From positions 62,001 to 126,000 of IMG/VR virus record IMGVR_UViG_3300027509_000013: DNA of 64,000 nt, one strand, 5' to 3'. Within the stretch, counting starts at the first letter, position 1. Each line of letters opens with the position of its first letter. The stretch comes from a virus. The notes beneath the pieces are model-generated. The model made no database searches. It had not been told where the DNA came from and saw nothing but the letters and a program-made list of their open reading frames with translations. The translations under genes were made by a program, and so were the position numbers. This document shows positions 12,437 to 63,014 of this stretch, piece by piece.

Positions 12437-12448
12437 TTAAAAAATAAC

Positions 12449-12775: not shown

Positions 12776-12779
12776 AAAG

Positions 12780-12850: not shown

Positions 12851-12854
12851 ATTG

Positions 12855-13365: not shown

Positions 13366-13385
13366 ATAAATTTATTTACTTAATG

Positions 13386-13462
13386 TATCTGCGGAGAGAC
13401 TTGAACTCTCATGTGACCAATTACGCTTTCGACAAGATATAAGCTTGAGGCGATACGCAGAC
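13386..13462 (-). tRNA. Atypical D-armless tRNA, anticodon TAT (Ile)
   Basis: Acceptor GTCTGCG/CGCAGAT and T-arm GAGAG-TTCAAGT-CTCTC are good. After TA come 5 bases (TCGCC), then an anticodon-like arm CAAG-CTTATAT-CTTG (TAT), then 21-23 bases containing GCGTAATTGG before the T-arm. No D-arm can be drawn in the usual place. Same layout as 9924-10003 and 13797-13873. Confidence 0.55.
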
Positions 13463-13474
13463 AATATAACATTG

Positions 13475-13545
13475 TAGTTCTGGCAGGACTTGAACCTGCG
13501 TCCATGGTATGTAACACCACTGCTCGGCCACTGAGCTACAGAACT
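13475..13545 (-). tRNA. tRNA-Val(TAC)
   Basis: Acceptor AGTTCTG/CAGAACT, standard D-arm, anticodon stem GTGGT/ACCAT around GTTACAT (TAC), T-arm GCAGG-TTCAAGT-CCTGC. Confidence 0.9.
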
Positions 13546-13548
13546 AGA

Positions 13549-13609
13549 GCCGCTTTCATTTATAACGCGCCAACGTCACCTTCTAAAAAGGCAGGTCATT
13601 ACAAGCGGG
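13549..13609 (-). ncRNA. Structured spacer, possible decayed tRNA
   Basis: Leftward CCGCTT and AAGCGG form an acceptor-like stem 60 bases apart. Between them TGCCT-TTTTAGA-AGGTG looks like an anticodon arm (TAG), followed by a GTTGG motif, but there is no T-arm. Function unclear. Confidence 0.25.
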
Positions 13610-13618
13610 ACCTGTTTG

Positions 13619-13692
13619 AGCACGAATTCGGGATCGAACCGAATCTATTCTAGCTTGGAAGGCTAGCGCACCACCATTTATGCGTCTCGTGC
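13619..13692 (-). tRNA. tRNA-Gly(TCC)
   Basis: Acceptor GCACGAG/TTCGTGC, anticodon stem CTAGC/GCTAG around CTTCCAA (TCC), T-arm TTCGG-TTCGATC-CCGAA. Confidence 0.9.
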
Positions 13693-13697
13693 TTATG

Positions 13698-13785
13698 TAC
13701 CTCAAGTTGATCTTAAAACTCTTCCTAGCTCCCTAAATGGGAGGGCTACAGAAATTCAAATCAAAATGGCTTGGGCCATCAGGTA
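13698..13785 (-). ncRNA. Structured spacer, unresolved
   Basis: Leftward TACCTGA and TGAGGTA ends can pair (one mismatch). Inside are GGC-CCAA-GCC and a hairpin CTCCC-ATTTA-GGGAG. It is tRNA-sized and placed like a tRNA, but no TTCRA loop or clear anticodon arm is seen. Confidence 0.25.
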
Positions 13786-13796
13786 ATTTCAGTTAG

Positions 13797-13873
13797 TTGG
13801 CACAATAGGATTCGAACCTATGTTTTCAACCGCTATCTTAGTCATGCGTATCAGGCATGCCGATTATGTGCCA
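13797..13873 (-). tRNA. Atypical D-armless tRNA-Ile(GAT)
   Basis: Acceptor TGGCACA/TGTGCCA, T-arm ATAGG-TTCGAAT-CCTAT and a perfect anticodon arm CATGC-CTGATAC-GCATG (GAT). Only TA plus 5 bases (ATCGG) precede the anticodon arm and 21 bases (containing GCGGTTGAAAAC) follow it. AATC may pair with GGTT around the anticodon arm. It and 13386-13462 are the only Ile tRNAs seen, which argues that they are functional. Confidence 0.65.
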
Positions 13874-13878
13874 ATATG

Positions 13879-13952
13879 CTGCTTTGCAAGGGATCGAACC
13901 TTGGACCTACGGATTAACAGTCCGCCGCTCTAACCAACTGAGCTACAAAGCA
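13879..13952 (-). tRNA. tRNA-Asn(GTT)
   Basis: Acceptor TGCTTTG/CAAAGCA, standard D-arm, anticodon stem GCGGA/TCCGT around CTGTTAA (GTT), T-arm CAAGG-TTCGATC-CCTTG. Confidence 0.92.
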
Positions 13953-13961
13953 ATGTAAGGG

Positions 13962-14008
13962 TAATCGTAAGATCTCGACGGCCACTTCGGACACCCTAAA
14001 ATCGATTA
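13962..14008 (-). ncRNA. Structured spacer between tRNA-Asn and tRNA-Ala
   Basis: TAATCG and CGATTA form an outer stem; the interior contains GTCCGAAGTGGCC. Too short for a tRNA; may be a processing element or remnant. Confidence 0.2.
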
Positions 14009-14011
14009 TTG

Positions 14012-14084
14012 TGGAGAAGAAGGGCTTCGAACCCTCAACCTTCTGATTGCAAATCAGATGCACGTCCTCTTGTGCTTCAACCCC
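14012..14084 (-). tRNA. tRNA-Ala(TGC)
   Basis: Anticodon stem TCTGA/TCAGA around TTTGCAA (TGC), D-stem GCAC/GTGC, T-arm GAGGG-TTCGAAG-CCCTT. The acceptor GGGGTTG/CTTCTCC has two T-T mismatches. Confidence 0.8.
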
Positions 14085-14087
14085 AAA

Positions 14088-14161
14088 TGGCGGGAGAGGG
14101 AGTCGAACCCTCGTCTTGGGCTTATGAGACCCAGCTGGAACCACCTCCAGTCTACCCCGCA
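14088..14161 (-). tRNA. tRNA with CAT anticodon (Met)
   Basis: Acceptor TGCGGGG/TCCCGCC with an unpaired first position (T1 against C72), as in initiators; anticodon loop CTCATAA on stem TGGGT/GCCCA; T-arm GAGGG-TTCGACT-CCCTC. The end mismatch and GGG/CCC pairs suggest initiator Met, but elongator Met or lysidine-type Ile cannot be excluded. Confidence 0.8.
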
Positions 14162-14174
14162 ATATATTTTCCAT

Positions 14175-14212
14175 AAAAAAAGGGACCAGAAAATTAATCC
14201 TGATCCCTTTTT
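14175..14212 (-). terminator. Hairpin plus T-tract before the tRNA-Met cluster
   Basis: Leftward GGGATCAG/CTGGTCCC stem (one mismatch) with loop containing TTAATTTT, then TTTTTTTATGG; tRNA starts 13 bases after the T-tract. It can also end the 15796-14372 operon. Confidence 0.65.
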
Positions 14213-14333
14213 GTATATTGTATGTTACTTACTTCAATACATAAAGAGACCAGGTGACGTATCATCGCCTCCGGCTACTATTGTAATATTGATATTGGTA
14301 ATAATTTGTTTCACTTTACTTTTTATTGAATGA

Positions 14334-14364
14334 CAAATGTACATTAAGTTTTATTACTAAGCAA
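14334..14364 (-). promoter_or_regulatory. Predicted leftward promoter of the 12.8-14.2 kb tRNA cluster
   Basis: Leftward TTG (14364-14362), 20 bases, TACATTTG (14341-14334). A good match to the Bacteroidota pattern. Transcripts from here meet the hairpin at 14212 before the first tRNA. The remaining gap 14213-14333 shows nothing else. Confidence 0.6.
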
Positions 14365-14371
14365 CAATTAA

Positions 14372-14806
14372 TCAATAATATCTTTTTGCTTGTAATGCTA
14401 TATCTATTTTAGCCCAGTTTACATAGTCTCTCCCTGTCGGGTTTTTGATCAATGGGCAACATATAGATGCATCATCGATATAAATGTGACAATAAGCTTT
14501 AGGACTTGTAGTCCATGTGTACTGTGTCGGATTTGTTTGGATCCCAAATAAATGAATTTCTCTGTCCTTAAACCAATTCACTGCTTGAGCTAGATAGTCT
14601 CCTGACTCAGTTATGATCTGAGGATCTTCTGATTCTGGATTGACTATATTTGATCTCATGGTAAATAAAATCAAATTATGTCCATTGGCTACTAACTTTT
14701 TAAGAGTCTTTACTGCTCCTGGAACGTCCGCTCCGACTTTAGGAAATTCATGTATCACACATGTTCCATCAAAATCTACCCCTACGTATCTATTTTCTTG
14801 CATCAT
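14372..14806 (-). CDS. HAD-superfamily hydrolase
   Basis: 144 residues. Motif I DFDGT (about 10-14) with nucleophile and acid aspartates, motif II at LILFTMRS (about 44-51), and motif IV at IYIDDAS (about 108-114) identify a compact HAD phosphatase without a large cap. Substrate unknown; small phage HADs may act on nucleotides or polynucleotide ends. Start overlaps the methylase-like gene's stop by 17 bases, so the two are coupled. Confidence 0.8.
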   Translation of the reverse strand: MMQENRYVGVDFDGTCVIHEFPKVGADVPGAVKTLKKLVANGHNLILFTMRSNIVNPESEDPQIITESGDYLAQAVNWFKDREIHLFGIQTNPTQYTWTTSPKAYCHIYIDDASICCPLIKNPTGRDYVNWAKIDIALQAKRYY

Positions 14807-15530
14807 TGAATAAGCTATTTATTTTTAAATCATTATATCTCTTCTGTCCATCAGTGAAGTAATCTATATCTTTTTCACAAACTACTAAAGTTAGATTCAT
14901 ATTATCGATTACATTAAGTTTATTGACAGCTAGAGCTAAACTCATGCTTCCTCCATGGGTGTCTAAGATCTTCTCTCCTGGCTTTGCATATTCCATTAGT
15001 AGCCATTCGTACAACTTAACTGGCTTTTGAGTAGGGTGTATTCTCTTTTCGTTGAGTTTCTTGTTCCCTTGCTGCTTTAGTGCCTTTACTCTATCTTTTC
15101 CACAGTATACTCCTTGCATCATTCCAGAGAACATGTAGTAAACGATGTCCATTCTGTTGCTAAAGCTTTGGTAGGCGATCTCACATCCATATTGGTCCGC
15201 GCCATTTGCTACTATCTTATCCCAGACTATTCTGCCGCCAACAAGATTAGGATAGTAGTTTGCACCCCAGATTATTTGATTCTTACTTACTCTAAATAAT
15301 TCGTCAAAGTACTCTGGTGGACTTCTCTGATCATCCCAATCTTTATGTTTGTATTTCGCTTGTTTTACTGGTCTATATGTTCCATTTGGTTGTTGAGCCC
15401 GACCTGATTTTGTAGAAGGCTTACTAGCACCTATTCCATATTCAAGATCTGGCATGGCTAAGTCGAAAAAGTTATCTCCGAGATCACGCATGAAATCCAT
15501 GTTGTCAGTATGTAGAAGAAGTATACTCAT
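14790..15530 (-). CDS. Adenine DNA methyltransferase-like protein with altered catalytic motif
   Basis: 246 residues. The fold is that of phage N6-adenine methylases of the beta order: FDLAMPDLEYGIG near residue 23-35 (catalytic region), NQIIWGANYY (about 89-98), then HPTQKPVKLYEWLL (about 164-177) and the AdoMet site as KILDTHGGSMSLALA (about 188-202). In relatives the catalytic motif is DPPY; here it reads DLEY, so both prolines are lost. It may be inactive, altered in specificity, or act as a binding protein. Neighbours: HAD gene downstream, zinc-ribbon protein upstream. Confidence 0.8.
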   Translation of the reverse strand: MSILLLHTDNMDFMRDLGDNFFDLAMPDLEYGIGASKPSTKSGRAQQPNGTYRPVKQAKYKHKDWDDQRSPPEYFDELFRVSKNQIIWGANYYPNLVGGRIVWDKIVANGADQYGCEIAYQSFSNRMDIVYYMFSGMMQGVYCGKDRVKALKQQGNKKLNEKRIHPTQKPVKLYEWLLMEYAKPGEKILDTHGGSMSLALAVNKLNVIDNMNLTLVVCEKDIDYFTDGQKRYNDLKINSLFNDARK

Positions 15531-15796
15531 TACAGCGCAGTACCAAGAAGTTGAGCCCCGGATTCAGAAGTATCCTTAGACATAACATATTGTTTTTCTC
15601 CTTCATCATCCCAAACACGATTAGAACAATCTGAACAGTATGTTTTCCCTTCTTCAGTAATAGACCATTCTCCTGCTTCTAAGATATCATCTTTTATTGC
15701 AGATTTCTCACTTAAAGCTACACATCCACTCCAAAGCTCATAGTTCTCTTTGCAGATATCACAAGATGCACACCACATTTTTACTTCTTCTATCAT
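15530..15796 (-). CDS. Small zinc-ribbon protein
   Basis: 88 residues with CASC-DIC (about 9-15) and CSDC (about 54-57), a probable zinc site, and an acidic C-terminus. Its stop overlaps the methylase start by one base. Not recognised; could be a cofactor of the methylase operon. Confidence 0.55.
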   Translation of the reverse strand: MIEEVKMWCASCDICKENYELWSGCVALSEKSAIKDDILEAGEWSITEEGKTYCSDCSNRVWDDEGEKQYVMSKDTSESGAQLLGTAL

Positions 15797-15817
15797 AATT
15801 TTTTTATTTTCGAATAA

Positions 15818-15888
15818 CCATCCGCTATCGGACTCCCTACCGATACCTGCTCCTTGGTGATCACCTTACTTTGGACGAGCTACGGATG
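15818..15888 (-). ncRNA. tRNA-sized structured element
   Basis: 71 bases in the gap between two leftward genes. CATCCGT/GCGGATG form a 7-pair end stem; GCTC/GAGC form a D-stem-like pair enclosing 24 bases; TATCGG-TAGGGAGT-CCGATA forms a 3' hairpin where a T-arm would be. No anticodon arm or TTCRA loop. Resembles the odd tRNAs in layout. Confidence 0.35.
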
Positions 15889-15900
15889 ATTGTTCTTCTC

Positions 15901-16335
15901 TTAATTAAATCCTAAATCAACTACTCTAGTACTCGGCGCTATCTCTTTCCAATTTCCTAATAATACTTCTGCAGGAGGCAAATCTAGTAAGCTTGCTAAA
16001 TCTATATAGGTGTCATAACATGAAGTAACATATAAATCTTTGAAATAACCCATTATAGCCATATGGTCCTGCAGAGAGATGTTTCTTAGTCTTAGATTTA
16101 AAGAACTGTCATCAATGGTCGACATTAGAATCCAGTAGTCTCCATGGTAACTATCAGGTTGAATAACTACACTGGTTGACTTTCCTCTATACTCAAATGT
16201 ATTTGGATTAGCATTGAGAAGGATCTTATGAGTATGAATGCCGACATCATCAGTATAATAGATCCAATGATTCTTGTATAAATCTGGAATAGGCTGATTA
16301 TGTCTGTATTCCCAATCTTTGATGTACTTAATCAT
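15901..16335 (-). CDS. Unknown protein
   Basis: 144 residues, rich in Tyr, Trp and Asp with many predicted strands (TSVVIQPDSYHGDYWILM). Ends with LGNWKEIAPSTRVVDLGFN. Overlaps the upstream gene by 8 bases. Not recognised. Confidence 0.55.
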   Translation of the reverse strand: MIKYIKDWEYRHNQPIPDLYKNHWIYYTDDVGIHTHKILLNANPNTFEYRGKSTSVVIQPDSYHGDYWILMSTIDDSSLNLRLRNISLQDHMAIMGYFKDLYVTSCYDTYIDLASLLDLPPAEVLLGNWKEIAPSTRVVDLGFN

Positions 16336-16768
16336 TATTAAACCGTTTTAACTCTCCACAATTTTGTGCATATTTAATAACTCCTTCCAATACATCTTTA
16401 GTCATTGATTCAATGTCATCATCAGTCATGTCTACACCCAATATTGGACCTTGAACTTTAACTGAAATACTTTGAATTTGACCTATTTTTACGAATCCAC
16501 ATTTGTGAGGACAGTTAAATACAGAAACTATGATGTTTTTGTCTTTACCTTCTAATGGCATTTTTACGTGTAAGTAACGTGGATCATTTGGTAATTGATA
16601 AGGATTATATTTCTCTTTCAGTGCTTCAAGCACAGCATAATAAGCCTTTTTTCTGCCTGGCATTATGTTTCCTGATAAATCTAAAGATTCCTTTAGAAGA
16701 GTTATCTCCTTATCATTCAAATCATTCATGTTGTCGCATACATCCTTAATTGCTTCTCTTATTTCCAT
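16328..16768 (-). CDS. Unknown protein
   Basis: 146 residues from the ATG at 16768; a longer frame would run into tRNA-Leu. Helical N-terminus (IREAIKDVCDNMNDLNDKEI), middle strands (KNIIVSVFNCPHKCGF) with a CPHKC pair, helical end. Not recognised. Confidence 0.55.
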   Translation of the reverse strand: MEIREAIKDVCDNMNDLNDKEITLLKESLDLSGNIMPGRKKAYYAVLEALKEKYNPYQLPNDPRYLHVKMPLEGKDKNIIVSVFNCPHKCGFVKIGQIQSISVKVQGPILGVDMTDDDIESMTKDVLEGVIKYAQNCGELKRFNND

Positions 16769-16781
16769 TATTGTGTATTTG

Positions 16782-16899
16782 AGGCCAGAGCAGGACTCGA
16801 ACCTGCAACACATCTTATATCGCTAGAAAATAAAGGTGTCTTAAAAATAAGAAGGATACTCCTAAAAAGTACTGCGTCTACCAATTCCGCCACCTGGCC
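16782..16899 (-). tRNA. tRNA-Leu(TAG) with a 49-base variable region
   Basis: Acceptor GGCCAGG/TCTGGCC, Leu-type D-arm (GCGGAATTGGTAGACGC), anticodon stem GTACT/AGTAT around TTTTAGG (TAG), T-arm GCAGG-TTCGAGT-CCTGC. The stretch between anticodon and T arms is 49 bases with two hairpins (CTTA-TTTT-TAAG and an ACAC...GTGT stem), far longer than the usual 13-21. Confidence 0.85.
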
Positions 16900-16904
16900 T
16901 TAGA

Positions 16905-16952
16905 TTTTAAAAATCGTCAGGGGACGATCAATATCCTTCAGAGTCCCCTGAC
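16905..16952 (-). terminator. Hairpin plus T-tract before tRNA-Leu
   Basis: GTCAGGGGAC and GTCCCCTGAC form a perfect 10-pair stem, leftward followed by GATTTTTAAAATC and then tRNA-Leu. Confidence 0.6.
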
Positions 16953-16967
16953 TTTATATGGTACTAT

Positions 16968-17097
16968 GCTTTTACAAGTATTTATGCTGACAATATAAAG
17001 AATCGCTCTACCCCTAAGCTACCCGACCTTGATTGTTTTTTAGAGGTCGGGATGGGATTCGAACCCATGACCTATTCCTTTAGTTTACTTGTAGCCT
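16968..17097 (-). tRNA. Candidate circularly permuted tRNA gene
   Basis: Leftward order is 3' half, 15-base linker, 5' half. The 3' half (17097-17044) has GGAAT, variable AGGTC, T-arm ATGGG-TTCGAAT-CCCAT, acceptor CCCGACC and T73. The 5' half (from 17028) has acceptor GGTCGGG, TA, D-arm GCTTAGGGGTAGAGC, then ATTCT. Acceptor halves pair perfectly, ATTCT pairs with GGAAT as the anticodon stem, and outer flanks TACAAGTA/TACTTGTA pair over 8 bases. The break is in the anticodon loop, so the anticodon is uncertain (ATA or CTA are possible). Neither half has another partner nearby. Confidence 0.6.
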
Positions 17098-17158
17098 TTC
17101 CCATGTATAATCCTGATGCTAAAGCTATTACCTCAACATTAAATCTAATATCTAGCAT
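17072..17158 (-). CDS. 28-residue open frame overlapping the permuted tRNA
   Basis: ATG at 17158 to TAG at 17072, peptide with a hydrophobic middle (NVEVIALASGLYMGKATSKL). Its end overlaps the 3' half of the permuted tRNA. It reads like protein rather than random sequence, but may be a chance frame. Confidence 0.3.
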   Translation of the reverse strand: MLDIRFNVEVIALASGLYMGKATSKLKE

Positions 17159-17196
17159 TTAATGAATCTGAACGTAATGCTTATGCTTCAGGTAAT

Positions 17197-17988
17197 TTAC
17201 TTTTTATGCAAATATGCAAACAAACTGTCAGCAGTAATGCTTGACTTTACACTTTCTACTTCATTAGCTTCTTTCAAAGCCTGAATAACAGCAACTCTAA
17301 GCTTAGATATTCTTGACAATACCTCTGCTTTTTCTCTTTGAGAAAAAGCTCCAGTAAATATTTGACGAGAACCCTCACCTAATGTAACAGTAGTTGTTTT
17401 TTGAGCAACTTTAGGAGTATAGCTAGCTCCATCAATCTTAGAAATATTTGGATCTTCTAAGATGTAATCGACTTTTTCAGTTGTTTTATTCTCAGTACGA
17501 ACTAATGGGTTTTCATAGATGCCTTTTCTTCCTTCATAAGACTCTTCTACAGTAGGATTCCACTCAACAGCATCTGATCTAACTGGTATGCTTGAATACA
17601 TACTCTTAAATTCAGGTGAGTCAATCAAAGATTTTAATCTAAGTAATTCTAAAGTAGACAAATCCTTCCACTTAATGTCATCAAAAATCAAATCAGCTTT
17701 AGCTGCGCCAGAAGCATTAGTAGCTTCTTGATCAAAAAGACTATCTATATAATCCTTAGAACTTAAAGAAAAGTAATCTAATTTTTCATCAACAGTAGTA
17801 ACCACTAATTGATTGCTTCTAAGTTTTGGGTCATCTACAGTTTGATCTTTTGGCTCATAAGTTTTCTTTTCACCAAAAAAAGCACCTTGATTTTTAGTGA
17901 AAAACTTAATGTAATTTTGAAGTGCTCTTTTAAATTCCTGACCAAGAGCATCGGTCTTTGCTAATAATACATTTAATTTTACATTCAT
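17197..17988 (-). CDS. Conserved-type unknown protein
   Basis: 263 residues. Helical ends and a central segment of short strands. The C-terminal part has REKAEVLSRISKLRVAVIQA, and an N-terminal K-rich helix followed by KDQTVDDPKLRSNQLVVTTV, an arrangement I associate with a widespread uncharacterised family in actinobacteria and phages. Function unknown. It has its own promoter (18007-18039) and a very short leader. The gap to the tRNA region downstream carries the 28-residue frame. Confidence 0.65.
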   Translation of the reverse strand: MNVKLNVLLAKTDALGQEFKRALQNYIKFFTKNQGAFFGEKKTYEPKDQTVDDPKLRSNQLVVTTVDEKLDYFSLSSKDYIDSLFDQEATNASGAAKADLIFDDIKWKDLSTLELLRLKSLIDSPEFKSMYSSIPVRSDAVEWNPTVEESYEGRKGIYENPLVRTENKTTEKVDYILEDPNISKIDGASYTPKVAQKTTTVTLGEGSRQIFTGAFSQREKAEVLSRISKLRVAVIQALKEANEVESVKSSITADSLFAYLHKK

Positions 17989-18006
17989 TATAATTCAATT
18001 TTGAAT

Positions 18007-18039
18007 CAAATGTAAACAAAATATTTTTTAATTAAGCAA
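18007..18039 (-). promoter_or_regulatory. Predicted leftward promoter for 17197-17988
   Basis: Leftward TTG (18039-18037), 22 bases, TACATTTG (18014-18007), ending 18 bases before ATG at 17988. Confidence 0.55.
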
Positions 18040-18056
18040 TAAATAAATATTTTTTT

Positions 18057-18093
18057 AAAAATAGCTGACATCGGTATTAACGATATCAGCTAT
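18057..18093 (-). terminator. Terminator after the 18.1-18.8 kb tRNA cluster
   Basis: ATAGCTGATATCG pairs with CGATGTCAGCTAT (one mismatch) leftward, then five T. It follows tRNA-Ser by four bases. Confidence 0.7.
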
Positions 18094-18097
18094 ATAG

Positions 18098-18185
18098 CGG
18101 TAAGTGAGAGGATCGAACTCTCAAGGCCTTTCAGCTCGCCATGTTTCAAATATGGTTCCGTCGCCTGCCATCGGATTGACCTACC
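18098..18185 (-). tRNA. tRNA-Ser(TGA)
   Basis: Acceptor GGTAGGT/ACTTACC, D-stem TCCG/CGGA, anticodon loop TTTGAAA (TGA) on CCATA/CATGG (one mismatch), long variable arm, T-arm GAGAG-TTCGATC-CTCTC. Confidence 0.88.
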
Positions 18186-18191
18186 ATGTTG

Positions 18192-18280
18192 CAGAAGGAG
18201 AGGGATTCGAACCCTCGCTACCAATTAAAGTAGACCTCAGATTAGCAGTCTGGTACTATTACCAACTCAGTCACCCTTCT
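18192..18280 (-). tRNA. tRNA-Ser(GCT)
   Basis: Acceptor AGAAGGG/TCCTTCT, anticodon stem CCAGA/TCTGA around CTGCTAA (GCT), variable arm CTAC...GTAG, T-arm GAGGG-TTCGAAT-CCCTC. Confidence 0.9.
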
Positions 18281-18284
18281 ATAG

Positions 18285-18368
18285 TGGGAATAGATGGAGT
18301 CGAACCACCCGAGTCATTATAACAACAGATTTACAGTCTGTCCCGCTACCCCTACGGTATATACTCCC
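18285..18368 (-). tRNA. tRNA-Tyr(GTA)
   Basis: Acceptor GGGAGTA/TATTCCC, D-arm CCG...CGG, anticodon stem ACAGA/TCTGT around CTGTAAA (GTA), long variable arm, T-arm GGTGG-TTCGACT-CCATC. Confidence 0.9.
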
Positions 18369-18372
18369 ATTG

Positions 18373-18446
18373 TACACACGATCGGACTTGAACCGATAAT
18401 CAACGCATTTTAAGTACGTCGGCGTTGCCATTTAGCCTACGTGTGC
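18373..18446 (-). tRNA. tRNA-Leu(TAA) with a short variable loop
   Basis: Acceptor GCACACG/CGTGTGT, D-stem GGC/GCC, anticodon stem ACGTA/TGCGT around CTTAAAA (TAA), T-arm ATCGG-TTCAAGT-CCGAT. The variable loop is only 5 bases, whereas bacterial Leu tRNAs have a long variable arm, so aminoacylation identity is uncertain. Confidence 0.75.
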
Positions 18447-18452
18447 TAAAAG

Positions 18453-18536
18453 TACCGAAGGTGGGACTCGAACCCACAAAGGTGTCACTTTCTAAAAGTG
18501 TGCAGTATGCCTAATTCCCACTTAACCCACTTCGGC
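18453..18536 (-). tRNA. tRNA-Leu(TAG), irregular D region
   Basis: Acceptor GCCGAAG/CTTCGGT, anticodon loop TTTAGAA (TAG) on CACT/AGTG, T-arm GTGGG-TTCGAGT-CCCAC. The D region is long (28 bases), with AGTG/TACT as the only possible stem. Confidence 0.75.
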
Positions 18537-18540
18537 AAAT

Positions 18541-18579
18541 AAAAAAAGCCCATTGCGATATTTCACGCAATGGGCTTTT
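18541..18579 (-). terminator. Hairpin plus T-tract before the tRNA-Leu cluster
   Basis: GCCCATTGCG and CGCAATGGGC form a 10-pair stem (longer with flanking A/T). Leftward it runs GGCTTTTTTTATTT directly into tRNA-Leu(TAG), as at tRNA-Phe. Confidence 0.7.
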
Positions 18580-18679
18580 GTAGTTCTTAACTTATTTCTA
18601 CATCAATACCGGTTGCGTTCGTCGTTAGACAAATAGAGCAGACTCGATAATGATGATGTATTTTTCATTGTATTATTTG

Positions 18680-18751
18680 TAACCCGTGAGATAATCGAAA
18701 TCTCCGCTTCACCTTGAAAAGATGACGTCCTGACCACTAGACCAACGGGCC
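18680..18751 (-). tRNA. tRNA-Glu(TTC)
   Basis: Acceptor GGCCCGT/ACGGGTT (two G-T pairs), anticodon stem TCATC/GGTGA around TTTTCAA (TTC), T-arm GAGAT-TTCGATT-ATCTC. The stretch 18603-18668 downstream holds a possible 21-residue frame of doubtful meaning. Confidence 0.85.
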
Positions 18752-26164: not shown

Positions 26165-27400
26165 AATATAGAAAAATATTTAAAAAAATAATAAAAGAAC
26201 TCAGTGAAGATAAATAAGTCATATAAATACAGAATTTATCCAAATGTAAAGCAAAAGATACTTATTGCTAAGACATTTGGCTGTGTGCGTATGTACTGGA
26301 ATTTATCTGTTGCTGAGTTTAATAAGCATTCTATTGAGTATAATCCTAAATATTTAACAGCTAAGCAGTTTAGGGATGAATATGAATTTCCTAAAGAAGT
26401 AAGTCATGGAGCTATACAACAAAAAAAGAGAGATTTTGAAAAGGCAAAGGCTCAATATTTTAATAAAAAAAGAAAGAAGAGTTTAGGTAGAATGAAATTT
26501 AAGTCTAGGCATAAAAGTAAAGACTCTTTCAGGATGACTAATAATAAGTTTAAGTTTAAAAAAGGTAAATTAAAAATAGAAAAACTAGGATTGATTAAAT
26601 TTGACAATCATAGACCACTGCCGGAAGATTGTAAATTAATGTCTGTCACTGTATCGAAAGATAGATGTGGGGATTATTTTGCTTCAATAAACTTTGAATT
26701 AGAGATACAAGCTAAGAAGAAAGTAATTAATGATAATGTAGGAATAGATTTAGGACTGAGTAGTATAGCTACACTTTCGAATGGGATGCAGTTTGGGAAT
26801 CCAAAAAGATTTAGAGAAAGCCAATCTAAATTAAAGAGAGCACAACAGCATTTAAGTAGGAAGAAAAAAGGTAGCGGTAGGTACTTGAAGCAGAAGCTAA
26901 AAGTAGCTAAGATTCATCGTAAGATATCAAGGCAGAGGGAGTGGCATTTGCATAACATTAGTCGATACATTGTTGACAACTTCAATGAAATCGGGATGGA
27001 AGATTTGAATGTTCAGGGAATGATGAAGAACAGGAAACTGGCTAAGTCATTAGCAGACTCTTCTATGTCGATGTTGAAAACGATGATTCAGTATAAGCAA
27101 AAAGAGTATGGCAAAGAAGTTGTTCAGATTGGTAGATTTGAGGCTTCAACGAAAGAGTGCCATGTTTGCAAGCACACGCAGGATATGAAGTTAAGCGACC
27201 GAATTTTTGAGTGTGGGAATTGTGGATTAACTATGGATAGAGATGTCCAAGCTGCAAGAGTAATTAGAAACAAGTCCGTAGGAGTTAATGCGGACTATAA
27301 TCGAACGAGGAGCAATAGTAAGACTTTACATCCACTTGTGGTTGTAAAGCGAATTGCATAGATCCGTTTAGAGTAAATTAGAAAAATATTTTTCTGAAAA
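26165..27400 (+). mobile_element. Solitary TnpB element (IS200/IS605-type, no TnpA)
   Basis: The TnpB gene is bounded by the direct repeat TAGAAAAATATTT (about 26168-26180 and 27379-27391). No TnpA transposase is next to it, so it would depend on one in trans. A guide (omega/reRNA) RNA would be expected from the 3' end of tnpB into the short right flank, but only ~50 bases separate it from the RuvC-like gene. Exact element ends are not certain. Confidence 0.5.
26204..27361 (+). CDS. tnpB: TnpB RNA-guided nuclease
   Basis: 385 residues from a GTG start (KINKSYKYRIYPN is the standard TnpB opening). The wedge and helical part (about 20-175) include QFRDEYEFPKEVSHGAIQQK and basic segments. RuvC-like catalytic residues are intact: D182 in VGIDLG, E266 in GMEDLN and D347 in MDRDVQ. 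The zinc knuckle CHVC...CGNC (about 319-338) is complete. It cleaves DNA next to a short motif, guided by an RNA from its own element end, and helps the transposon persist. Its insertion between late operon genes leaves both neighbours intact. Confidence 0.92.
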   Translation: MKINKSYKYRIYPNVKQKILIAKTFGCVRMYWNLSVAEFNKHSIEYNPKYLTAKQFRDEYEFPKEVSHGAIQQKKRDFEKAKAQYFNKKRKKSLGRMKFKSRHKSKDSFRMTNNKFKFKKGKLKIEKLGLIKFDNHRPLPEDCKLMSVTVSKDRCGDYFASINFELEIQAKKKVINDNVGIDLGLSSIATLSNGMQFGNPKRFRESQSKLKRAQQHLSRKKKGSGRYLKQKLKVAKIHRKISRQREWHLHNISRYIVDNFNEIGMEDLNVQGMMKNRKLAKSLADSSMSMLKTMIQYKQKEYGKEVVQIGRFEASTKECHVCKHTQDMKLSDRIFECGNCGLTMDRDVQAARVIRNKSVGVNADYNRTRSNSKTLHPLVVVKRIA

Positions 27401-57500: not shown

Positions 57501-58120
57501 TAAATGACAATACTGGTGCTAAGACGATCCCATTCTTGTATTATGAGTGTGTGAGTTGTGATGGAAATTACTATAAAGATTGTGATGGTAATTTAATCGA
57601 TAAGCCATGTTGTGCTTGTGTTGGAGTTTTGCCAGCTAAAGATTTATCTCAAGATATTTTAGATAAACTGTGTGAAATAGCAGAACTACTTACAGTTAAA
57701 CCTGGTTGTGATGAAGTCTGTGAATCTGCTCCTTTCTGTGTGAGAGGTTTTGATTACCAAGATCTTGACACATGGGAAAAAGGTTCTATGGAATGGGAAA
57801 CTCCAACAGGAGTATCTGTAGATCAGCCTATTTCTCAAGATGATGGCGGTAAAGCCTCTTGGTACGCTAATCTTATAGCTAATGTAAATAGTAATGCAGG
57901 TTGGACCATGAGTGTAGTTACAGATGTAAATTCTACAGATCAGGGGCCTAAGCCGGTGTTCCAATTTGTTGGACCTTGTGATTCAGAATTAGTTATTGTA
58001 AGAAATGGCGGAGACACCTTAACACTTACTGTAGATGCTGATGGAGTAATGACGGGTACATTTGAAGATGGCGGTAATAACATTGCTTCTGAGACATTTG
58101 TAAATTGTGGAGGAAAGTAA
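54545..58120 (+). CDS. Giant repeat protein with Cys-bearing modules
   Basis: 1191 residues. About residues 55-580 contain five or six copies of a repeat of roughly 75-90 residues that includes CNTDTNVYD, PTTTPCDE, DFEKIRLCD and LEDIDTG. Each has two or more Cys, suggesting disulfide-linked beta modules. The C-terminal half (about 590-1191) is mixed, with DDVTGWGKVLTDAFPELCEV and AQWEAAFLAQGHYC and small Cys groups. Likely a tail fibre stalk with a receptor-binding end. Stop overlaps the next start by 1-4 bases. Confidence 0.6.
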   Translation: MYCTKYAEVIKGIPTGNVICIDSDPASPTFGEKVECTECTDCPTAPVIVHDVEMVCNEYTDVYDAYCYVITDGVKAEPVIVPTETPCDQNPPEATSNRVCINGVINIVTYLIAEGEEPVELSSIPTEELCAEVDADIIIDCKGGTETVKVDQRVSIVGAENIIPVRVVEDCEPTVTVEVDYKCDTAQGIQIRCENTYTDGVLTSTVETPTTIPCDDKSIDFEKVRICDLVTKTIHLQICSFDQDGVKTLVEDVDTGEPCALDSVAVDYELICNTDTNVYDLHTFTTVNGVAGLPVITPTTTPCDEPKPDFEKIRLCDSGTGTYHVQICSIAEDGTKTILEDIDTGQSCDGSTPQLIRECIGGFINIVSYVLDEAGGRTLVEAVPTLEVCDLGEPIVETDIEYICNTDTNVYDQHLIVTTDGVAAAPIITPTTTPCDEEKPDFETVEYCDLGTGTIHSITYQILDGVQTVFSDIDTGSVCLVDDVEIDNEFVCNEDTNVYDMHTITTVNGVAGPIVITPTTTSCDDQTPTPLVVRECRDDVINIVCYSVAEDGTKTEVLAKPTDEYCEKCKGEPKVYKGKKYRFAFENSKTRFTNSYKVEFTLNNGTIRVVDLPTATNWGTQMDDVTGWGKVLTDAFPELCEVTRHWADWKQSQLPQSGAGSIPQTDMLGLNEVDTLVGQYIQFEACPDQLDYLPVGARFLERNGSPWETTAIYLLKEGATEYKTFCISCDEDCAEIVDKCFIPAEDSFPVTPEPQCTFNTFQVCEWAPDMADPNDPNVIIPGSVVTQNIFLRFAYCGAESESEAFTLDADGNETEFIPVAPNYLAPCDSGSPIMPDVDCPSDCNWTRNDGVIHAAALDNNNWTGAGNNWGLIRPQWDATMEIELADSTTFVLTQTASSNAYDQLAQWEAAFLAQGHYCKVGLYCDNWRGCAKSPNPNAPSGLDWPVEVAFGNYLYVESCDATKLPVKATILKASGPSGAANAVGAVNDNTGAKTIPFLYYECVSCDGNYYKDCDGNLIDKPCCACVGVLPAKDLSQDILDKLCEIAELLTVKPGCDEVCESAPFCVRGFDYQDLDTWEKGSMEWETPTGVSVDQPISQDDGGKASWYANLIANVNSNAGWTMSVVTDVNSTDQGPKPVFQFVGPCDSELVIVRNGGDTLTLTVDADGVMTGTFEDGGNNIASETFVNCGGK

Positions 58121-58410
58121 TGAGTAGAAAATCTAAAATAACCAATAGTAAAAAAGCTGCTAAAGCTTATATAGAATATCTCTTAACATTGAGTTTTGTA
58201 GATGATGTTTATATAGGCGGCAGTAGAAGTACTGAAACCAAAAAAGAGCCTACTAAAGACTCTGATTGGGATATACAAGTAATTTGTAAAAACAAACCAA
58301 AGAGAATCTTTTATACAAGTCCTAGAAATCTAGGTGTACTTCATGCTGATGTACATTGGAGAACTAAGCAAAGTGCAGAAGCTGTTCATTGGTCTAAAAT
58401 AATAAAATAA
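58120..58410 (+). CDS. Minimal nucleotidyltransferase (MNT-type) in the tail module
   Basis: 96 residues from ATG at 58120. The signature GGSRS (33-37), 10 residues, then DSDWD (47-51) is the G-S...DxD active site of the polymerase-beta-like nucleotidyltransferases, and ADVHW (about 76-80) a third strand. Such domains transfer NMP to a protein, RNA or small molecule, or form the toxin/antidote MNT-HEPN pair. Embedded in a virion module it is unexpected; whether it modifies virion or host molecules is open. Junctions with both neighbours are tight. Confidence 0.65.
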   Translation: MSRKSKITNSKKAAKAYIEYLLTLSFVDDVYIGGSRSTETKKEPTKDSDWDIQVICKNKPKRIFYTSPRNLGVLHADVHWRTKQSAEAVHWSKIIK

Positions 58411-59759
58411 TGGCTGGAAGTCAAGCAATATACGATTTACTCTGTAAGCTGTGCGGTAACGATAAAGAGTTACTAGAAAAACTATGTGATGTTTATGAAA
58501 TAGTTAGCGAACTTCCTACAGAGATTCCTCCGTGCCCTCCTTGTCCAGATGCCCCTAAATGTGCATCTAGTACTGTTTGCTATAATGTTCAAGAAAAGAT
58601 ATTAGTTAATATAGGTTCTGGAGATTGTGATCCTGCAGATTTAGAATTAGGTGATACTATATGCTCTAATGTCTTTTTAGATGCTAACGGTAATGGTGGT
58701 AGTTTTTCTCTTCCACCAAGTTATAAAGGTGTCACGTATGATGGCAGTCAATTTTGTTGGATACTAGACGCTACTAATTCTGGTGGTAGTGTAATGTATC
58801 CAGTCACTTATATAGATGTAAATGGGAAACACCATACAACTGAATTATTAGTTTGTTCAGGAGGCACTGATCAATTAACTATACTCTTAGATAATATTAC
58901 AGAGTATAAATGCATGATATGTGATGATGGAGAAGGTCCATCTTTCTTTGATATTGCAACAGGAAAAAAATTAGAAGAGTCTCCTCAAGGAGAATTAACT
59001 TCTTGCTTTAATCAGATCAATATTCCACCTTGTCCTCAATGTACCGAAGTTATATTCCCAGATCACATACAACTAGAGAGAGTTGAGGGATGTGTAAGCG
59101 GTGTGTCAGCATACAGAGAAGACACAATAACTAATGGAGTAAGAGTAGAAGGTCCAGTAGTTACACAGACTCCTATTACTGGAGATTTTTCACCTTATCC
59201 TTGTTCTTATGTCCCTTGCGATACTGTTACATGTGATATAGAAACTGCTAATTGCTGTTGTTTCAATGATATGAATGTAGATATAACTCAACTTAGTGGA
59301 GGTTATGTTAATCAGTTATTACCTTGTGATTGTGGTAAGTCTGGAGATTTCTCTTTCAAATTTAAGATGTGTAACTTTGTAAATGATGCCTTATTCAGAA
59401 TAGGTGTTACAGATAATTGCGGTTCAACATCTATTTCTGATTTAGATCATGGTTTTTATATTCTGACAAGGGCAAATATATCAATTCCATATTCTTATAC
59501 GTATATAGTAGAGGGTAGCGGAATTGCTTCAGGAACTACTTGGGTGAACTACGAAAGAGTTGGTATTCCTAAGTGTGTGGAATATGAAATAAGAAGAGTT
59601 GGAGCTAACATAGAATACTATGTAGAAGGTGTATTAAAGTACACAAGACCTGACTTAACAGGAGGAGCTACCTTATTCCCATATGCTAATATACATGGTA
59701 CGTGGGCAGTAGATGGTTCTTTTGATTTAACCAATATTAACTTTTGTGAAATAGTATAA
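58410..59759 (+). CDS. Cys-rich structural protein
   Basis: 449 residues. N-terminal helix then Cys-rich segments (PPCPPCPDAPKCASSTVC; CEIVK not present). The C-terminal part is strand-rich with CDCGKSGDFSFKFKMCN and NIHGTWAVDGSFDLTNI. Likely a tail component. Not recognised. Confidence 0.5.
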   Translation: MAGSQAIYDLLCKLCGNDKELLEKLCDVYEIVSELPTEIPPCPPCPDAPKCASSTVCYNVQEKILVNIGSGDCDPADLELGDTICSNVFLDANGNGGSFSLPPSYKGVTYDGSQFCWILDATNSGGSVMYPVTYIDVNGKHHTTELLVCSGGTDQLTILLDNITEYKCMICDDGEGPSFFDIATGKKLEESPQGELTSCFNQINIPPCPQCTEVIFPDHIQLERVEGCVSGVSAYREDTITNGVRVEGPVVTQTPITGDFSPYPCSYVPCDTVTCDIETANCCCFNDMNVDITQLSGGYVNQLLPCDCGKSGDFSFKFKMCNFVNDALFRIGVTDNCGSTSISDLDHGFYILTRANISIPYSYTYIVEGSGIASGTTWVNYERVGIPKCVEYEIRRVGANIEYYVEGVLKYTRPDLTGGATLFPYANIHGTWAVDGSFDLTNINFCEIV

Positions 59760-59761
59760 TT

Positions 59762-60025
59762 ATGTGTACAGAATTAGAAATAATAAAATCTCAAGGAGGA
59801 CTTGAAGGATTGTCTAATGAAGACATCAAAACATTAGCTGAAGGATTTATTTTGTCATCTGAGATTGGTGGAGATTCAGATGTAAGAGAAAGATTTGAGA
59901 AAATAAAAAAGGAATATACTGTCAAGCAATTAAAAGCAATAATCAAAGAAGCAGGAATAACTGGTTACAGTCGACTTAGAGAAGATGATTTAATTCAAAT
60001 TGTAATCGACAATAATCTATTGTAG
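59762..60025 (+). CDS. Small helical protein with SAP/Rho-N-like end
   Basis: 87 residues. YTVKQLKAIIKEAGITGYSR then LREDDLIQIVI at the C-terminus resemble the Rho N-terminal/SAP helix-hairpin that binds nucleic acid. Could be a DNA-binding virion component. The gap 60026-60103 to the next gene is AT-rich without clear signals. Confidence 0.45.
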   Translation: MCTELEIIKSQGGLEGLSNEDIKTLAEGFILSSEIGGDSDVRERFEKIKKEYTVKQLKAIIKEAGITGYSRLREDDLIQIVIDNNLL

Positions 60026-60103: not shown

Positions 60104-61138
60104 ATGGCTCAAGTAAAAGATATATTCTTCAATAAAGGTGTTCCTAAAGGTACTACCTATCCTTTGACGCAACGTCAAATCGATTCTTGGCCAAAGGGAA
60201 CTCAAGCCGTTTCACCTTATGCAATGACTCACAAGTGGGTACACTTGCAGGCTAAAGATATGCCTTTTGAGCCATTTACAACAAGTCAAGAAGAGTTCTG
60301 GACACAGTTGATAGAAGTAGCTGAAGGAGTTCAGATGGCGAGATCTAGGAGATGGAAGCCATTTGTGAATGTTCCATACATGGAAGACACTCCAACTTCT
60401 GGATGTATAATCAAAGATTATAAAGTTCACCGACCAGATCAGGCAGCCGAGTTAGTGCATGCTGATTGGCCAGATGAAATAGTAAATCATTTGTGTGAAT
60501 TTCTAATTGGCAAAGAAGCTAAGTGGAGAAACATTACAAATGAAGGAAACTATGGCAACTTCACTAATGGACCGGTATTTATAAATCGAGTTATTGGATG
60601 GGCAATACATCATGTAAGTCCTACTTGTTTTGCTCACAAGTGGTATTATGGAGTACCTAGACCAGAAGAAGTTATAGGTGCTTTTGTTCGTGGAGAGATC
60701 CATTCTCCAAACGAAGAGCAAAATAAAAAATTAAGAAAAATCATTAAAGGTTCTTGGACAAGAGACATATTGAGAGATCAAAGACTCTTCACTATGTATA
60801 AGGGGAACACCCCAGGTTCTATAGGATCACCTAAGCATCCAAGTTTCGGAGCGATGCATAGTGCTATGGCAGCTGTTACCCTCATTCTTCCAGTATTTTT
60901 TGACTTGACACCTGAAGAGCTTTATGAAGTTCGTCAGACAACGGTAAACACATCATGGTATAGATTACTTGCAGGAGTCCATTATAGAATGGACAACATG
61001 TATGGAATCGAACTAGGAGAGAGAGTAGTAGAAAAAGTTCTACCATCTTACTTAGCTAAGTATGGTGCTGATAAGAGAAAAGTACAAAGAATCATTTCAT
61101 CACATAGAAATGTAAACTGGTTACAGTATGCATCTTAA
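60104..61138 (+). CDS. Vanadium haloperoxidase/PAP2-like protein
   Basis: 344 residues. Active-site layout of the PAP2/vanadium haloperoxidase superfamily: K179-x6-R186-P187 (HKWYYGVPRP), then HPSFGAMHSAMAA (245-257) where PSGH is expected, and R287-x5-H293 (YRLLAGVHYRMDN). The middle motif is altered (FGAMH in place of SGH). No signal peptide or multi-span membrane region is evident, unlike lipid phosphatases. It could halogenate, act as a phosphatase or be structural; chemistry unverified. It opens the lysis/right module. Confidence 0.7.
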   Translation: MAQVKDIFFNKGVPKGTTYPLTQRQIDSWPKGTQAVSPYAMTHKWVHLQAKDMPFEPFTTSQEEFWTQLIEVAEGVQMARSRRWKPFVNVPYMEDTPTSGCIIKDYKVHRPDQAAELVHADWPDEIVNHLCEFLIGKEAKWRNITNEGNYGNFTNGPVFINRVIGWAIHHVSPTCFAHKWYYGVPRPEEVIGAFVRGEIHSPNEEQNKKLRKIIKGSWTRDILRDQRLFTMYKGNTPGSIGSPKHPSFGAMHSAMAAVTLILPVFFDLTPEELYEVRQTTVNTSWYRLLAGVHYRMDNMYGIELGERVVEKVLPSYLAKYGADKRKVQRIISSHRNVNWLQYAS

Positions 61139-61151
61139 ATTATTTGTTAAA

Positions 61152-62036
61152 ATGAGAATACTTTTTGTATTTATTCTTTTCTTTATTTCTTTACAATCTT
61201 GTAGTAATCCAAGTGGGGAGTCTGGTAAAGAAACAGAAACAGTTATTGATAGCTCTTTTGTACCTCACAGTGGAACGGCTTATATGGATTGTGGGATGAG
61301 CCCATATTTATTATTGGGAGATCAGATGTTTACAGATGCAGATACATATTATGAGTGTTCTGTTCGGTTTATAAAAATTGCAAACGAAAAAGAGCCAGAA
61401 GTAGTAAATGCAAGCTTAATAAATAAAGCAATTGAAAATGCGAACATTCATTTTGAATCTTCTAGAATAAGATTTAAAGTAGAAGAGATCGTTGTTGTTG
61501 AAGATCCAAATGCATTTAGGGAAGGGATATCTATGTATCAAAAGCATGGCAGAACGTATAGTGAAAGAGGATATTTGAATGTCTTCATTTATCCAAGTAC
61601 TATAGGAACATACAGTGCGGCAGCAGGAGGAATTCCAAGTAGGTTTTTTGCTATAAAGGAATATTACTTGGCCACGAGTACTTTTGCTCATGAAGCTGCG
61701 CATTGCTTCGGACTTTATCATATCTTTACAAAAGATGATAGTGGATCTAAAAGTACATTTGCAACAGGTGATCTTATTTGTGATACTCCTTATGCTGATT
61801 TTTATTCGCAAGGTAATTCCCTCGGATACACAGGTAGAGTTACTGACAATTGCGAATATGTAGGTCCATTAGGGGGATTGACACAAGAAGAGCATAATAT
61901 AAATATTAGGAATATTACTGGATATTCTTTACTAGAATGTAGAAAAGAATTTACAAAAGATCAAATAGATCGAGTTCATTGGATTATAAATAATTCTCAG
62001 GATTTAAAAGAAATGCTTAAAATGGTAGATATATGA
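61152..62036 (+). CDS. M43-type metalloprotease lipoprotein
   Basis: 294 residues from ATG at 61152, after the overlap with the previous stop. Signal peptide with lipobox (LFFISLQSC). HEAAHCFGLYH (about 180-190) is the HExxHxxGxxH zinc motif of M43 (pappalysin/cytophagalysin), and GDLICDTPYAD (about 205) is the matching downstream block. Exported to the periplasm or outer surface, it would degrade host surface or cell-wall proteins, perhaps aiding exit. The stop overlaps the next gene by 4 bases. Confidence 0.8.
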   Translation: MRILFVFILFFISLQSCSNPSGESGKETETVIDSSFVPHSGTAYMDCGMSPYLLLGDQMFTDADTYYECSVRFIKIANEKEPEVVNASLINKAIENANIHFESSRIRFKVEEIVVVEDPNAFREGISMYQKHGRTYSERGYLNVFIYPSTIGTYSAAAGGIPSRFFAIKEYYLATSTFAHEAAHCFGLYHIFTKDDSGSKSTFATGDLICDTPYADFYSQGNSLGYTGRVTDNCEYVGPLGGLTQEEHNINIRNITGYSLLECRKEFTKDQIDRVHWIINNSQDLKEMLKMVDI

Positions 62037-62374
62037 AAAATTTAATTGTTTTGTTTTTTGTTTTACTTAATTCAGTTTGCTTTGGGCAAAGTGATTTGTT
62101 TTCAGTCGACGTAACTCCTGAGAACTATCTATACACTGAGTTGAATTCATTGAGTAATGATGCTGAATTAATTATAGACTGTGTAGACTATGATTATAGA
62201 AGTGCTGAGTTTTATGATGGACGAGGGATTCCTCTTGTTTACATTCATGAGTCAGGAGTATTGATTTTCTTAAAGTCAGATAATCCAGATAACTTGCACA
62301 TCATATATTCAGATATAAACGATCGAGTTTTGACAAAGTTAGATCAATTAAAATACATTTATTATCATGAATAA
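62033..62374 (+). CDS. Small exported unknown protein
   Basis: 113 residues with a typical signal peptide (KNLIVLFFVLLNSVCFGQ, cleavage near 20). The mature part is acidic (SVDVTPENYLYTELNSLSND) with strands. A partner of the lysis module by position. Not recognised. Confidence 0.55.
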   Translation: MKNLIVLFFVLLNSVCFGQSDLFSVDVTPENYLYTELNSLSNDAELIIDCVDYDYRSAEFYDGRGIPLVYIHESGVLIFLKSDNPDNLHIIYSDINDRVLTKLDQLKYIYYHE

Positions 62375-63014
62375 GATAATAGCAATACTAATATCAGTAC
62401 TTCTTTTGACATGTTGTCGACACAAGTACGATATTCCTGTTTGTTCTGTTACTGAGGATAGAGTAGCTTTTCAAGATGGATTCGAAGAGTCAGATTCGGT
62501 TATTCTTTCTGGACTTGCAGATGCTTATGGTGCAGATCAGATTTATCTTGTATTTCATACTGATGCCACATACAAAGGCAGAGAGTTTGAGGGTCCAGAT
62601 GAAATAAATCAATTTTTTAAAAATCATTATGGATGGAGAAGTCCTGGTTATATTGAATGGTTAGATCGAGATTGTGAATGGCACCAGTTAAAATCATTTA
62701 ATATCGATTGTGTTATTGAGCCATGGGAGATATCTAATGGAGCAAGAGGTTATAATACAATAGCTGTACATTTAGCTTATAGCTCTTCATTAAGAATGTG
62801 GAATACTGGGGATGACACTCGGACGGATTGCATGAAGGATGCTATTGCAGATAGGGTAAAATTATATAAATCGATTTGTCCAAATGTAAAAGTCATAGGA
62901 CATAGGGATTTGTCACCTGATTTAAACGGAGATGGAATAATAACCAGTAATGAGTTTACAAAGACCTGTCCAAATTTTGATGTAGCTAAAGAATATAAAC
63001 ACTTGCTTGAATGA
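62367..63014 (+). CDS. N-acetylmuramoyl-L-alanine amidase (Amidase_2), putative lipoprotein endolysin
   Basis: 215 residues. N-terminal lipobox (LLLTC, C16). Amidase_2 zinc ligands are H64 in VFHTDAT, H179 in GHRDLSPD and C201 in KTCPNFD; the NGDGIITSNEFTKTCP block is typical of Bacteroidota phage and host amidases. It cleaves the glycan-peptide bond of peptidoglycan for lysis. A lipid-anchored endolysin would need the Sec pathway and stay membrane-bound until activated. Overlaps neighbours by 8 and 4 bases. Confidence 0.8.
   Translation: MNKIIAILISVLLLTCCRHKYDIPVCSVTEDRVAFQDGFEESDSVILSGLADAYGADQIYLVFHTDATYKGREFEGPDEINQFFKNHYGWRSPGYIEWLDRDCEWHQLKSFNIDCVIEPWEISNGARGYNTIAVHLAYSSSLRMWNTGDDTRTDCMKDAIADRVKLYKSICPNVKVIGHRDLSPDLNGDGIITSNEFTKTCPNFDVAKEYKHLLE

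What the first reader, a model, noticed from the sequence alone, without database searches (positions are those of the whole stretch)
60104..61138. Phage protein with a vanadium haloperoxidase/PAP2 active site
K-x6-RP, a modified PSGH-like block (HPSFGAMHS) and R-x5-H are spaced as in the superfamily. I know of no common phage use of this enzyme. It could make hypohalous acid, dephosphorylate lipids or precursors, or have become structural. The altered middle motif makes the activity uncertain. Position at the start of the lysis module suggests an envelope or exit role.
Basis: partly seen in the sequence, partly recalled or inferred. Interest (0 to 1): 0.75.

Follow-up and report, generated by a model that had tools for sequence, protein, structure and literature searches.

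The report
Phage relative of algal vanadium bromoperoxidases
A virus of bacteria related to the crAss-like phages carries a shortened, altered relative of the seaweed enzymes that make bleach-like halogen compounds; similar genes sit beside the shell genes of other uncultured phages, which hints at a little-explored use of this enzyme fold by viruses.

Summary
ORF 60104-61138 (344 aa) has K179-x6-R186-P, H245-PSFGAM-H252 and R287-x5-H293. A profile of 14 vanadium-haloperoxidase (VHPO) relatives without the window protein scores it 57.1 bits; the best of 5,000 shuffles scores 5.3. The family is specific: red-algal/Acaryochloris-type vanadium bromoperoxidases (relatives' profile vs PDB E~1e-140; structural Z 9.5-11 against acid phosphatases at 7.9 or less). 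The window protein lacks the N-terminal ~140 residues of those enzymes, keeps all six charged/His pocket residues, but has Met for the motif-2 Gly that all 17 aligned relatives keep. One clear kin was found: a 313-aa protein with an intact motif, directly upstream of the portal-type gene of an uncultured podovirus-like contig. A separate clade of full-length phage VHPOs occurs on 14 IMG/VR contigs, several near major capsid genes; 50,697 public phage records gave none. The record is a crAss-like-type phage. Most likely: a late-made, oxyanion-binding VHPO-type enzyme carried or released with virions. Haloperoxidase activity is unproven; phosphatase or structural roles remain open.

The parts
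60104..61138 (+). VHPO/PAP2-superfamily protein, 344 aa, short phage lineage
60638..60664 (+). motif 1, K179-x6-R186-P187
   Evidence: K, R and P invariant in A5, 18 rows
60836..60862 (+). motif 2, H245-P-S-F-G-A250-M251-H252-S; M251 replaces the Gly found in all 17 aligned relatives
60962..60982 (+). motif 3, R287-x5-H293 (H293 = expected axial vanadate ligand)
58410..59759 (+). upstream Cys-rich 449-aa ORF of the late module, function not identified
59762..60025 (+). 87-aa ORF with Rho_N-like C-terminal half, directly upstream
   Evidence: PF07498 E 7.5e-6; phrog_2724
61128..62036 (+). downstream gene overlapping the VHPO-like gene by 11 bases: M43-type zinc metalloprotease with a lipobox-like N-terminus
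   Evidence: HEAAHCFGLYH and LQSC read by eye
62367..63014 (+). amidase/endolysin with a lipobox-like N-terminus
   Evidence: phrog_21433 E 4e-16, phrog_822 E 3e-15

Best explanation
The gene encodes a shortened, strongly diverged protein of the bromoperoxidase branch of the vanadium haloperoxidase/PAP2 superfamily, from a phage lineage that lacks the N-terminal ~140 residues but keeps the catalytic helical bundle and its cationic oxyanion pocket (supported here by homology, alignment and model). Inferred: it is made late with the virion and lysis genes, has no evident export signal, binds vanadate (or phosphate) between K179, R186, R287 and H293 with H252 as acid/base and H245 behind it, and oxidises halide with hydrogen peroxide to a hypohalous species in or around the virion or at lysis. 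The likely targets are host-envelope or extracellular-matrix molecules, or the peroxide itself. The Gly-to-Met change probably tunes or weakens the pocket rather than removing oxyanion binding, because the Gly supplies a backbone NH (recalled from VHPO structures) that Met also has. Identity step about 0.95; active haloperoxidase about 0.4.
For: Profile score 57.1 bits vs 5.3 for the best of 5,000 shuffles. The nearest kin L074 aligns over 307 residues, E 2e-21 for the single comparison, with canonical HPSYPAGH. The two-row profile finds vanadium bromoperoxidases first in PDB, 1qi9 E 4e-10. VIA-align: the ten best entries are all VHPOs, Z 9.5-11.0 over 218-244 residues. Of 58 columns conserved in at least 16 of 17 relatives the window keeps 29, and keeps 6 of 6 charged/His pocket columns (K179, R186, H245, H252, R287, H293); hypergeometric P 0.012, columns chosen after the fact. 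With the Gly column counted it is 6 of 7. Gene order. GC and codon use are in the range of the phage's other late genes. Related phage genes in virion modules.
Against: M251 replaces a Gly kept by all 17 aligned relatives and by L074. Pfam cut-off not reached. Model modest: mean pLDDT 52.8, pTM 0.50, residues 1-108 under 50, and it was guided by an alignment of VHPOs; no Foldseek hit at E<=0.001. Only one copy of this sequence was found, so selection on the pocket cannot be measured directly. No evidence here for halide, peroxide or vanadate use, nor for presence in virions.
Confidence: 0.45

Rival explanations
1. Virion structural or scaffolding protein: the VHPO fold was recruited as a pseudoenzyme, for example as part of a neck or tail assembly, and the pocket is residual.
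For: M251 at an otherwise invariant Gly and loss of half of the conserved columns, 29 of 58 kept; relatives lie near portal and capsid genes; the window gene follows the late virion-type module.
Against: All six charged/His pocket positions are kept; L074 and most long phage VHPOs have intact motifs.
Confidence: 0.28
2. PAP2-type phosphatase acting on phosphorylated lipid carriers, nucleotides or phosphosugars at the envelope, using the same pocket without vanadate.
For: Same superfamily; apo-VHPOs are known to hydrolyse phosphate esters (recalled); motif 1 spacing K-x6-RP as in acid phosphatases (recalled), where the long relatives of A4 have K-x7-RP; acid phosphatases are the next structural group, Z up to 7.9; neighbours act on the envelope.
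Against: Sequence and fold both rank bromoperoxidases first; H245, typical of bromoperoxidases (recalled), is kept; no membrane helix or signal peptide is evident by eye.
Confidence: 0.2
3. Inactive remnant on its way to loss, with no present role.
For: Long branch, 1.9 changes per column; altered motif 2.
Against: Intact 344-codon frame, phage-like codon use, overlap with the next gene, all six charged/His pocket positions kept.
Confidence: 0.06

Closest known systems
Red-algal, brown-algal and Acaryochloris vanadium bromoperoxidases (1qhb, 1up8, 5lpc, 8q21, 1qi9)
   Same: Catalytic bundle, motifs 1-3 with the bromoperoxidase His (H245), best sequence and structure matches.
   Different: 344 aa instead of about 560-670; lacks the N-terminal part and the loop between motifs 2 and 3; Met for the motif-2 Gly; phage gene in a late module.
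Long phage VHPO clade found here (14 IMG/VR contigs, about 507-532 aa)
   Same: Phage-borne, same branch; several near capsid or tail genes.
   Different: Full length, canonical motif 2 in most; separate clade, SH-aLRT 100.
L074 protein, IMGVR_UViG_3300002061_000007 (313 aa)
   Same: Short architecture, K-x6-RPEE, 26% identity over 307 residues.
   Different: Canonical HPSYPAGH; podovirus-like contig, gene directly upstream of the head-tail adaptor gene.
Class A acid phosphatases / PAP2 lipid phosphatases (PhoN, PgpB)
   Same: Superfamily and bundle core; Z up to 7.9.
   Different: Lower structural and sequence rank; no bromoperoxidase-type H245 block (recalled).
Cyanophage Syn10 flavin-dependent halogenase VirX1
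   Same: A halogenating enzyme from a phage, described as the first characterised from a virus (PMC8407142, passages read).
   Different: Flavin enzyme of a different fold (fold recalled); no vanadium.

Membership tests
Vanadium haloperoxidases, bromoperoxidase branch (group 1 of PMC13198595) | Homology over the catalytic domain | tested here: met
   57.1 bits by a profile made without it; PDB hits
Vanadium haloperoxidases, bromoperoxidase branch (group 1 of PMC13198595) | VHPO helical-bundle fold | tested here: met
   Ten best VIA-align rows are VHPOs, Z 9.5-11.0. Moderate: pTM 0.50, alignment-guided model, Foldseek best E 2.4e-3
Vanadium haloperoxidases, bromoperoxidase branch (group 1 of PMC13198595) | Motifs 1 and 3: Lys, Arg, Arg and axial His | tested here: met
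   K179, R186, R287, H293; the same residue in all 17 aligned relatives
Vanadium haloperoxidases, bromoperoxidase branch (group 1 of PMC13198595) | Motif 2 intact, (S/A)-G-H | tested here: not met
   A250-M251-H252: His kept, Gly replaced by Met. Therefore not filed as a vanadium haloperoxidase proper, only as a VHPO-like superfamily protein
Vanadium haloperoxidases, bromoperoxidase branch (group 1 of PMC13198595) | Full-length N-terminal region | tested here: not met
   Residues 4-9 align with the RDxPF block, which lies about 135-160 residues into most of the long phage frames
Vanadium haloperoxidases, bromoperoxidase branch (group 1 of PMC13198595) | Vanadate-dependent halide oxidation | not testable with these tools
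   Needs purified protein
Pfam PF01569 PAP2 superfamily | Curated gathering score 27.2 bits | tested here: not met
   23.6 bits, E 4.7e-5. Insensitive for this branch: only 10 of 15 members of A3 match at E<=0.01
PAP2 phosphatases | Phosphatase activity | not testable with these tools
   Needs purified protein
crAss-like phages (Crassvirales) | Terminase and portal of the group | tested here: met
   Terminase: 49 phage records, best Cellulophaga phage phi14:2, 26% over 96%; portal phrog_6547. That these hit records are crAss-like is partly recalled; full taxonomy not tested

The most novel reading that the evidence does not exclude
Unrelated tailed phages (T4-like, podovirus-like, crAss-like) have taken up algal-type vanadium haloperoxidases at least twice as virion-module proteins. 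Phages would then carry or release a hypohalite-making (or peroxide-disarming) enzyme, and the crAss-like form would show a working pocket with Met in place of the Gly.
Probability: 0.2. Interest if true: 0.85.

Novelty: new variant of a known kind. Interest (0 to 1): 0.6.

Why it matters
VHPOs are known from algae, fungi, cyanobacteria and bacteria. Here members of the bromoperoxidase branch lie on phage contigs near capsid, tail and portal genes, while 50,697 public phage records gave no VHPO match with four query proteins and the paper searches listed below found no report. If active, phages would have a route to halogen chemistry and peroxide handling at infection or lysis, and the canonical phage forms could be tested at once. 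The window form also offers a natural test of whether the motif-2 Gly is needed.

Tried and rejected
Mycobacterium phage Reindeer as a relative: E 0.2, match antisense across two unrelated genes; rejected. Single-sequence AlphaFold2: pLDDT 33.9, not used. IMG/VR scan with the single protein: nothing. Motif-3 DNA pattern in IMG/VR: 0 matches. Two-row alignment A7 in IMG/VR: 1 of 56 candidates confirmed, again the L074 contig. Bacteroidota genomes: 4 of 395 match the protein at E<=0.001 and 4 of 395 match A7 at E<=1e-6, all only around motifs 2-3 of 409-517 aa frames; no close bacterial donor. A3 profile: 13 of 296 Bacteroidota genomes and 5 of 140 Myxococcota genomes at E<=1e-5. L009 (identical portal, 35-kb contig) has no match to the protein. 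Four IMG/VR contigs (L010, L011, L012, L014) look host-like by eye and are kept out of the phage count. BFVD: one clear row, an uncharacterised 578-aa Sylvanvirus protein, probability 1.00 but E 0.011; no phage row of weight.

Papers: searches of the PMC library. No listed title or abstract start reports a phage vanadium haloperoxidase; most listed papers were not opened. Passages read: PMC9317374 (TM4 mycobacteriophage proteins resembling haloperoxidases, type not said), PMC8407142, PMC6864650, PMC11871015, PMC13198595 (passages 100, section 18 whole 101), PMC1876218 (alpha/beta-hydrolase haloperoxidase, unrelated; 111).

Full report
OBSERVATION. The ORF at 60104-61138 is intact and encodes 344 aa. 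Pfam PAP2 matches at E 4.7e-5 but under the curated cut-off. PHROGs and NCBIfam give nothing of weight. The nine best PDB sequence hits are vanadium bromoperoxidases at E 0.005-0.006.

CONTEXT. The window is positions 62001-126000 of a 131,999-base virus record. The terminase has matches in 49 of 50,697 public phage records, best Cellulophaga phage phi14:2 at 26% identity over 96%, the others listed mostly gut phages and Flavobacterium phages (that these are crAss-like is partly recalled). The portal matches phrog_6547. The gene lies on the late strand after large Cys-rich ORFs and an 87-aa Rho_N-like ORF, and overlaps the next gene by 11 bases. That gene is an M43-type metalloprotease with a lipobox-like start; an amidase follows after one more gene. 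GC 0.390 is slightly above the other late genes compared (0.329-0.384) and the codon-use score lies within their range.

RELATIVES. Alignment-guided scans of IMG/VR confirmed 10 loci of 44 candidates and 19 of 48. Of the 19 contigs, four look host-like by eye (L069-L072, the same contigs as L010, L011, L012 and L014), one is L074, and 14 carry a long VHPO of about 507-532 aa (one, L060, cut by the contig end). A profile of 15 rows including the window protein matches 1qhb, 1up8, 5lpc and 8q21 end to end at E about 1e-140, which fixes the branch: red-algal/Acaryochloris-type bromoperoxidases. None of four query proteins (window, L016, L008, L074) found a VHPO in 50,697 phage records (E limits 1, 0.001, 0.001, 0.1; the only hits, two Reindeer records, are noise).

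HOMOLOGY TEST. A profile of the 14 relatives without the window protein scores it 57.1 bits, against 5.3 for the best of 5,000 shuffles. The relatives were fetched by resemblance to the window protein, so this is not blind. The single pair with L074, which was found by a scan with other phage VHPOs, is E 2e-21 over 307 residues. A two-row profile of window and L074 finds 1qi9 at E 4e-10 and 5lpc/8q21 at about 6e-7.

FOLD. With 18 rows AlphaFold2 gives mean pLDDT 52.8 and pTM 0.50; 100 residues lie at 70-90 and residues 1-108 under 50. Foldseek ranks seven VHPO chains first (probability 1.00, best E 2.4e-3, none at E<=0.001). VIA-align puts ten VHPO entries at Z 9.5-11.0, then acid phosphatases at 7.9 and less, with unrelated folds from 5.3. 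The tool warns that Z under about 13 can be a common arrangement in helical bundles, and the model was guided by VHPO rows, so this supports rather than proves.

POCKET. Of 58 columns conserved in at least 16 of 17 relatives, the window keeps 29; it keeps 6 of 6 charged/His pocket columns but not the motif-2 Gly, which all 17 have. The hypergeometric P for 6 of 6 is 0.012, post hoc. Ala at the Ser position is common in this branch. Outside the branch the Gly position varies: Ala in two Bacillota plasmid proteins (L003, L005) and Glu and Asn in the two repeats of a Rhizobium protein (L006). Residue roles (axial His, acid/base His, backbone NH of Gly) are recalled from VHPO structures; PMC13198595 section 18 states three conserved motifs and the motif-3 His-vanadate bond, and reports the motif-2 His replaced in 24 algal group-2 sequences.

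PHAGE SETTING ELSEWHERE. L074: the gene ends at 6585 and a head-tail adaptor gene (phrog_332, E 3e-33) starts at 6586; a weak major head protein match and a tail protein follow. Long clade: chosen neighbours were scanned with PHROGs on 11 of 14 contigs; 6 of 11 gave a structural match, namely major head proteins on L016, L061, L065, L067 and L068 and a tail protein on L007. The genes chosen from L008, L062, L013, L015 and L017 gave none (L015: GroEL; L017: dehydrogenase). L060 and L073 carry ORFs whose starts equal those of the L016 and L061 capsid genes (by eye, not scanned); L059 was not scanned. Only a few neighbours per contig were scanned, so this is a tendency, not a census.

TREE. 27 rows, 394 columns, quick method: the 13 long phage rows form one clade (SH-aLRT 100); window and L074 pair (99), but both have very long branches (1.9 and 2.36), so the pairing and a separate origin are provisional.

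MECHANISM. Supported here: family, catalytic-domain homology, kept cationic pocket, altered Gly, late-module position. Inferred: oxyanion (vanadate) binding, halide oxidation, release or packaging with virions, and target. Probabilities: superfamily identity about 0.95; active haloperoxidase about 0.4; structural or pseudoenzyme about 0.28; phosphatase about 0.2.

NOVELTY. VirX1, a flavin halogenase from cyanophage Syn10, is called the first halogenase characterised from a virus (PMC8407142, passages), so phage halogenation as such has a precedent. A phage vanadium haloperoxidase was not found in the paper searches named under Tried and rejected; that library lacks most subscription journals and all preprints.

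Noticed in passing
window 61128-62036: Phage-encoded M43 (pappalysin-like) zinc metalloprotease with lipobox-like start and HEAAHCFGLYH motif; PF05572 E 8e-7 above its cut-off; no match in 50,697 phage records.
   Followed up: partly
L016, L061, L065, L067, L068, L007 and further loci: A clade of full-length, mostly canonical vanadium-bromoperoxidase-like genes on IMG/VR phage contigs, several near major capsid genes; stronger candidates for activity than the window protein.
   Followed up: partly
L068:5179-6756 and L065:4002-5576: Motif 2 also varies in the long phage clade, before the Gly: HPSANAGH (L068) and HPSYMAGH (L065).
   Followed up: no
L019 39-1307, 2417-3706, 3850-6405: Three VHPO frames in tandem in a Gemmatimonadetes metagenome-assembled genome.
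   Followed up: no
window 26204-27361: Transposase ORF (phrog_506, E 2e-110) inside the phage late region, shortly before the terminase.
   Followed up: no
L052 927-16010 (window's own record, outside the window): 5,027-aa ORF, very large for a phage protein; content not examined.
   Followed up: no
window 9645-18751: Eighteen tRNA genes for 18 different amino acids in a 9-kb stretch.
   Followed up: no
window 58105-58410: Small nucleotidyltransferase-like ORF (Polbeta E 0.0035, below cut-off; weak MntA antitoxin similarity, E 0.033) among the late genes.
   Followed up: no
BFVD A0A3G5AI90 (Sylvanvirus): An uncharacterised 578-aa giant-virus protein is the only BFVD row with Foldseek probability 1.00, a possible VHPO in a giant virus.
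   Followed up: no
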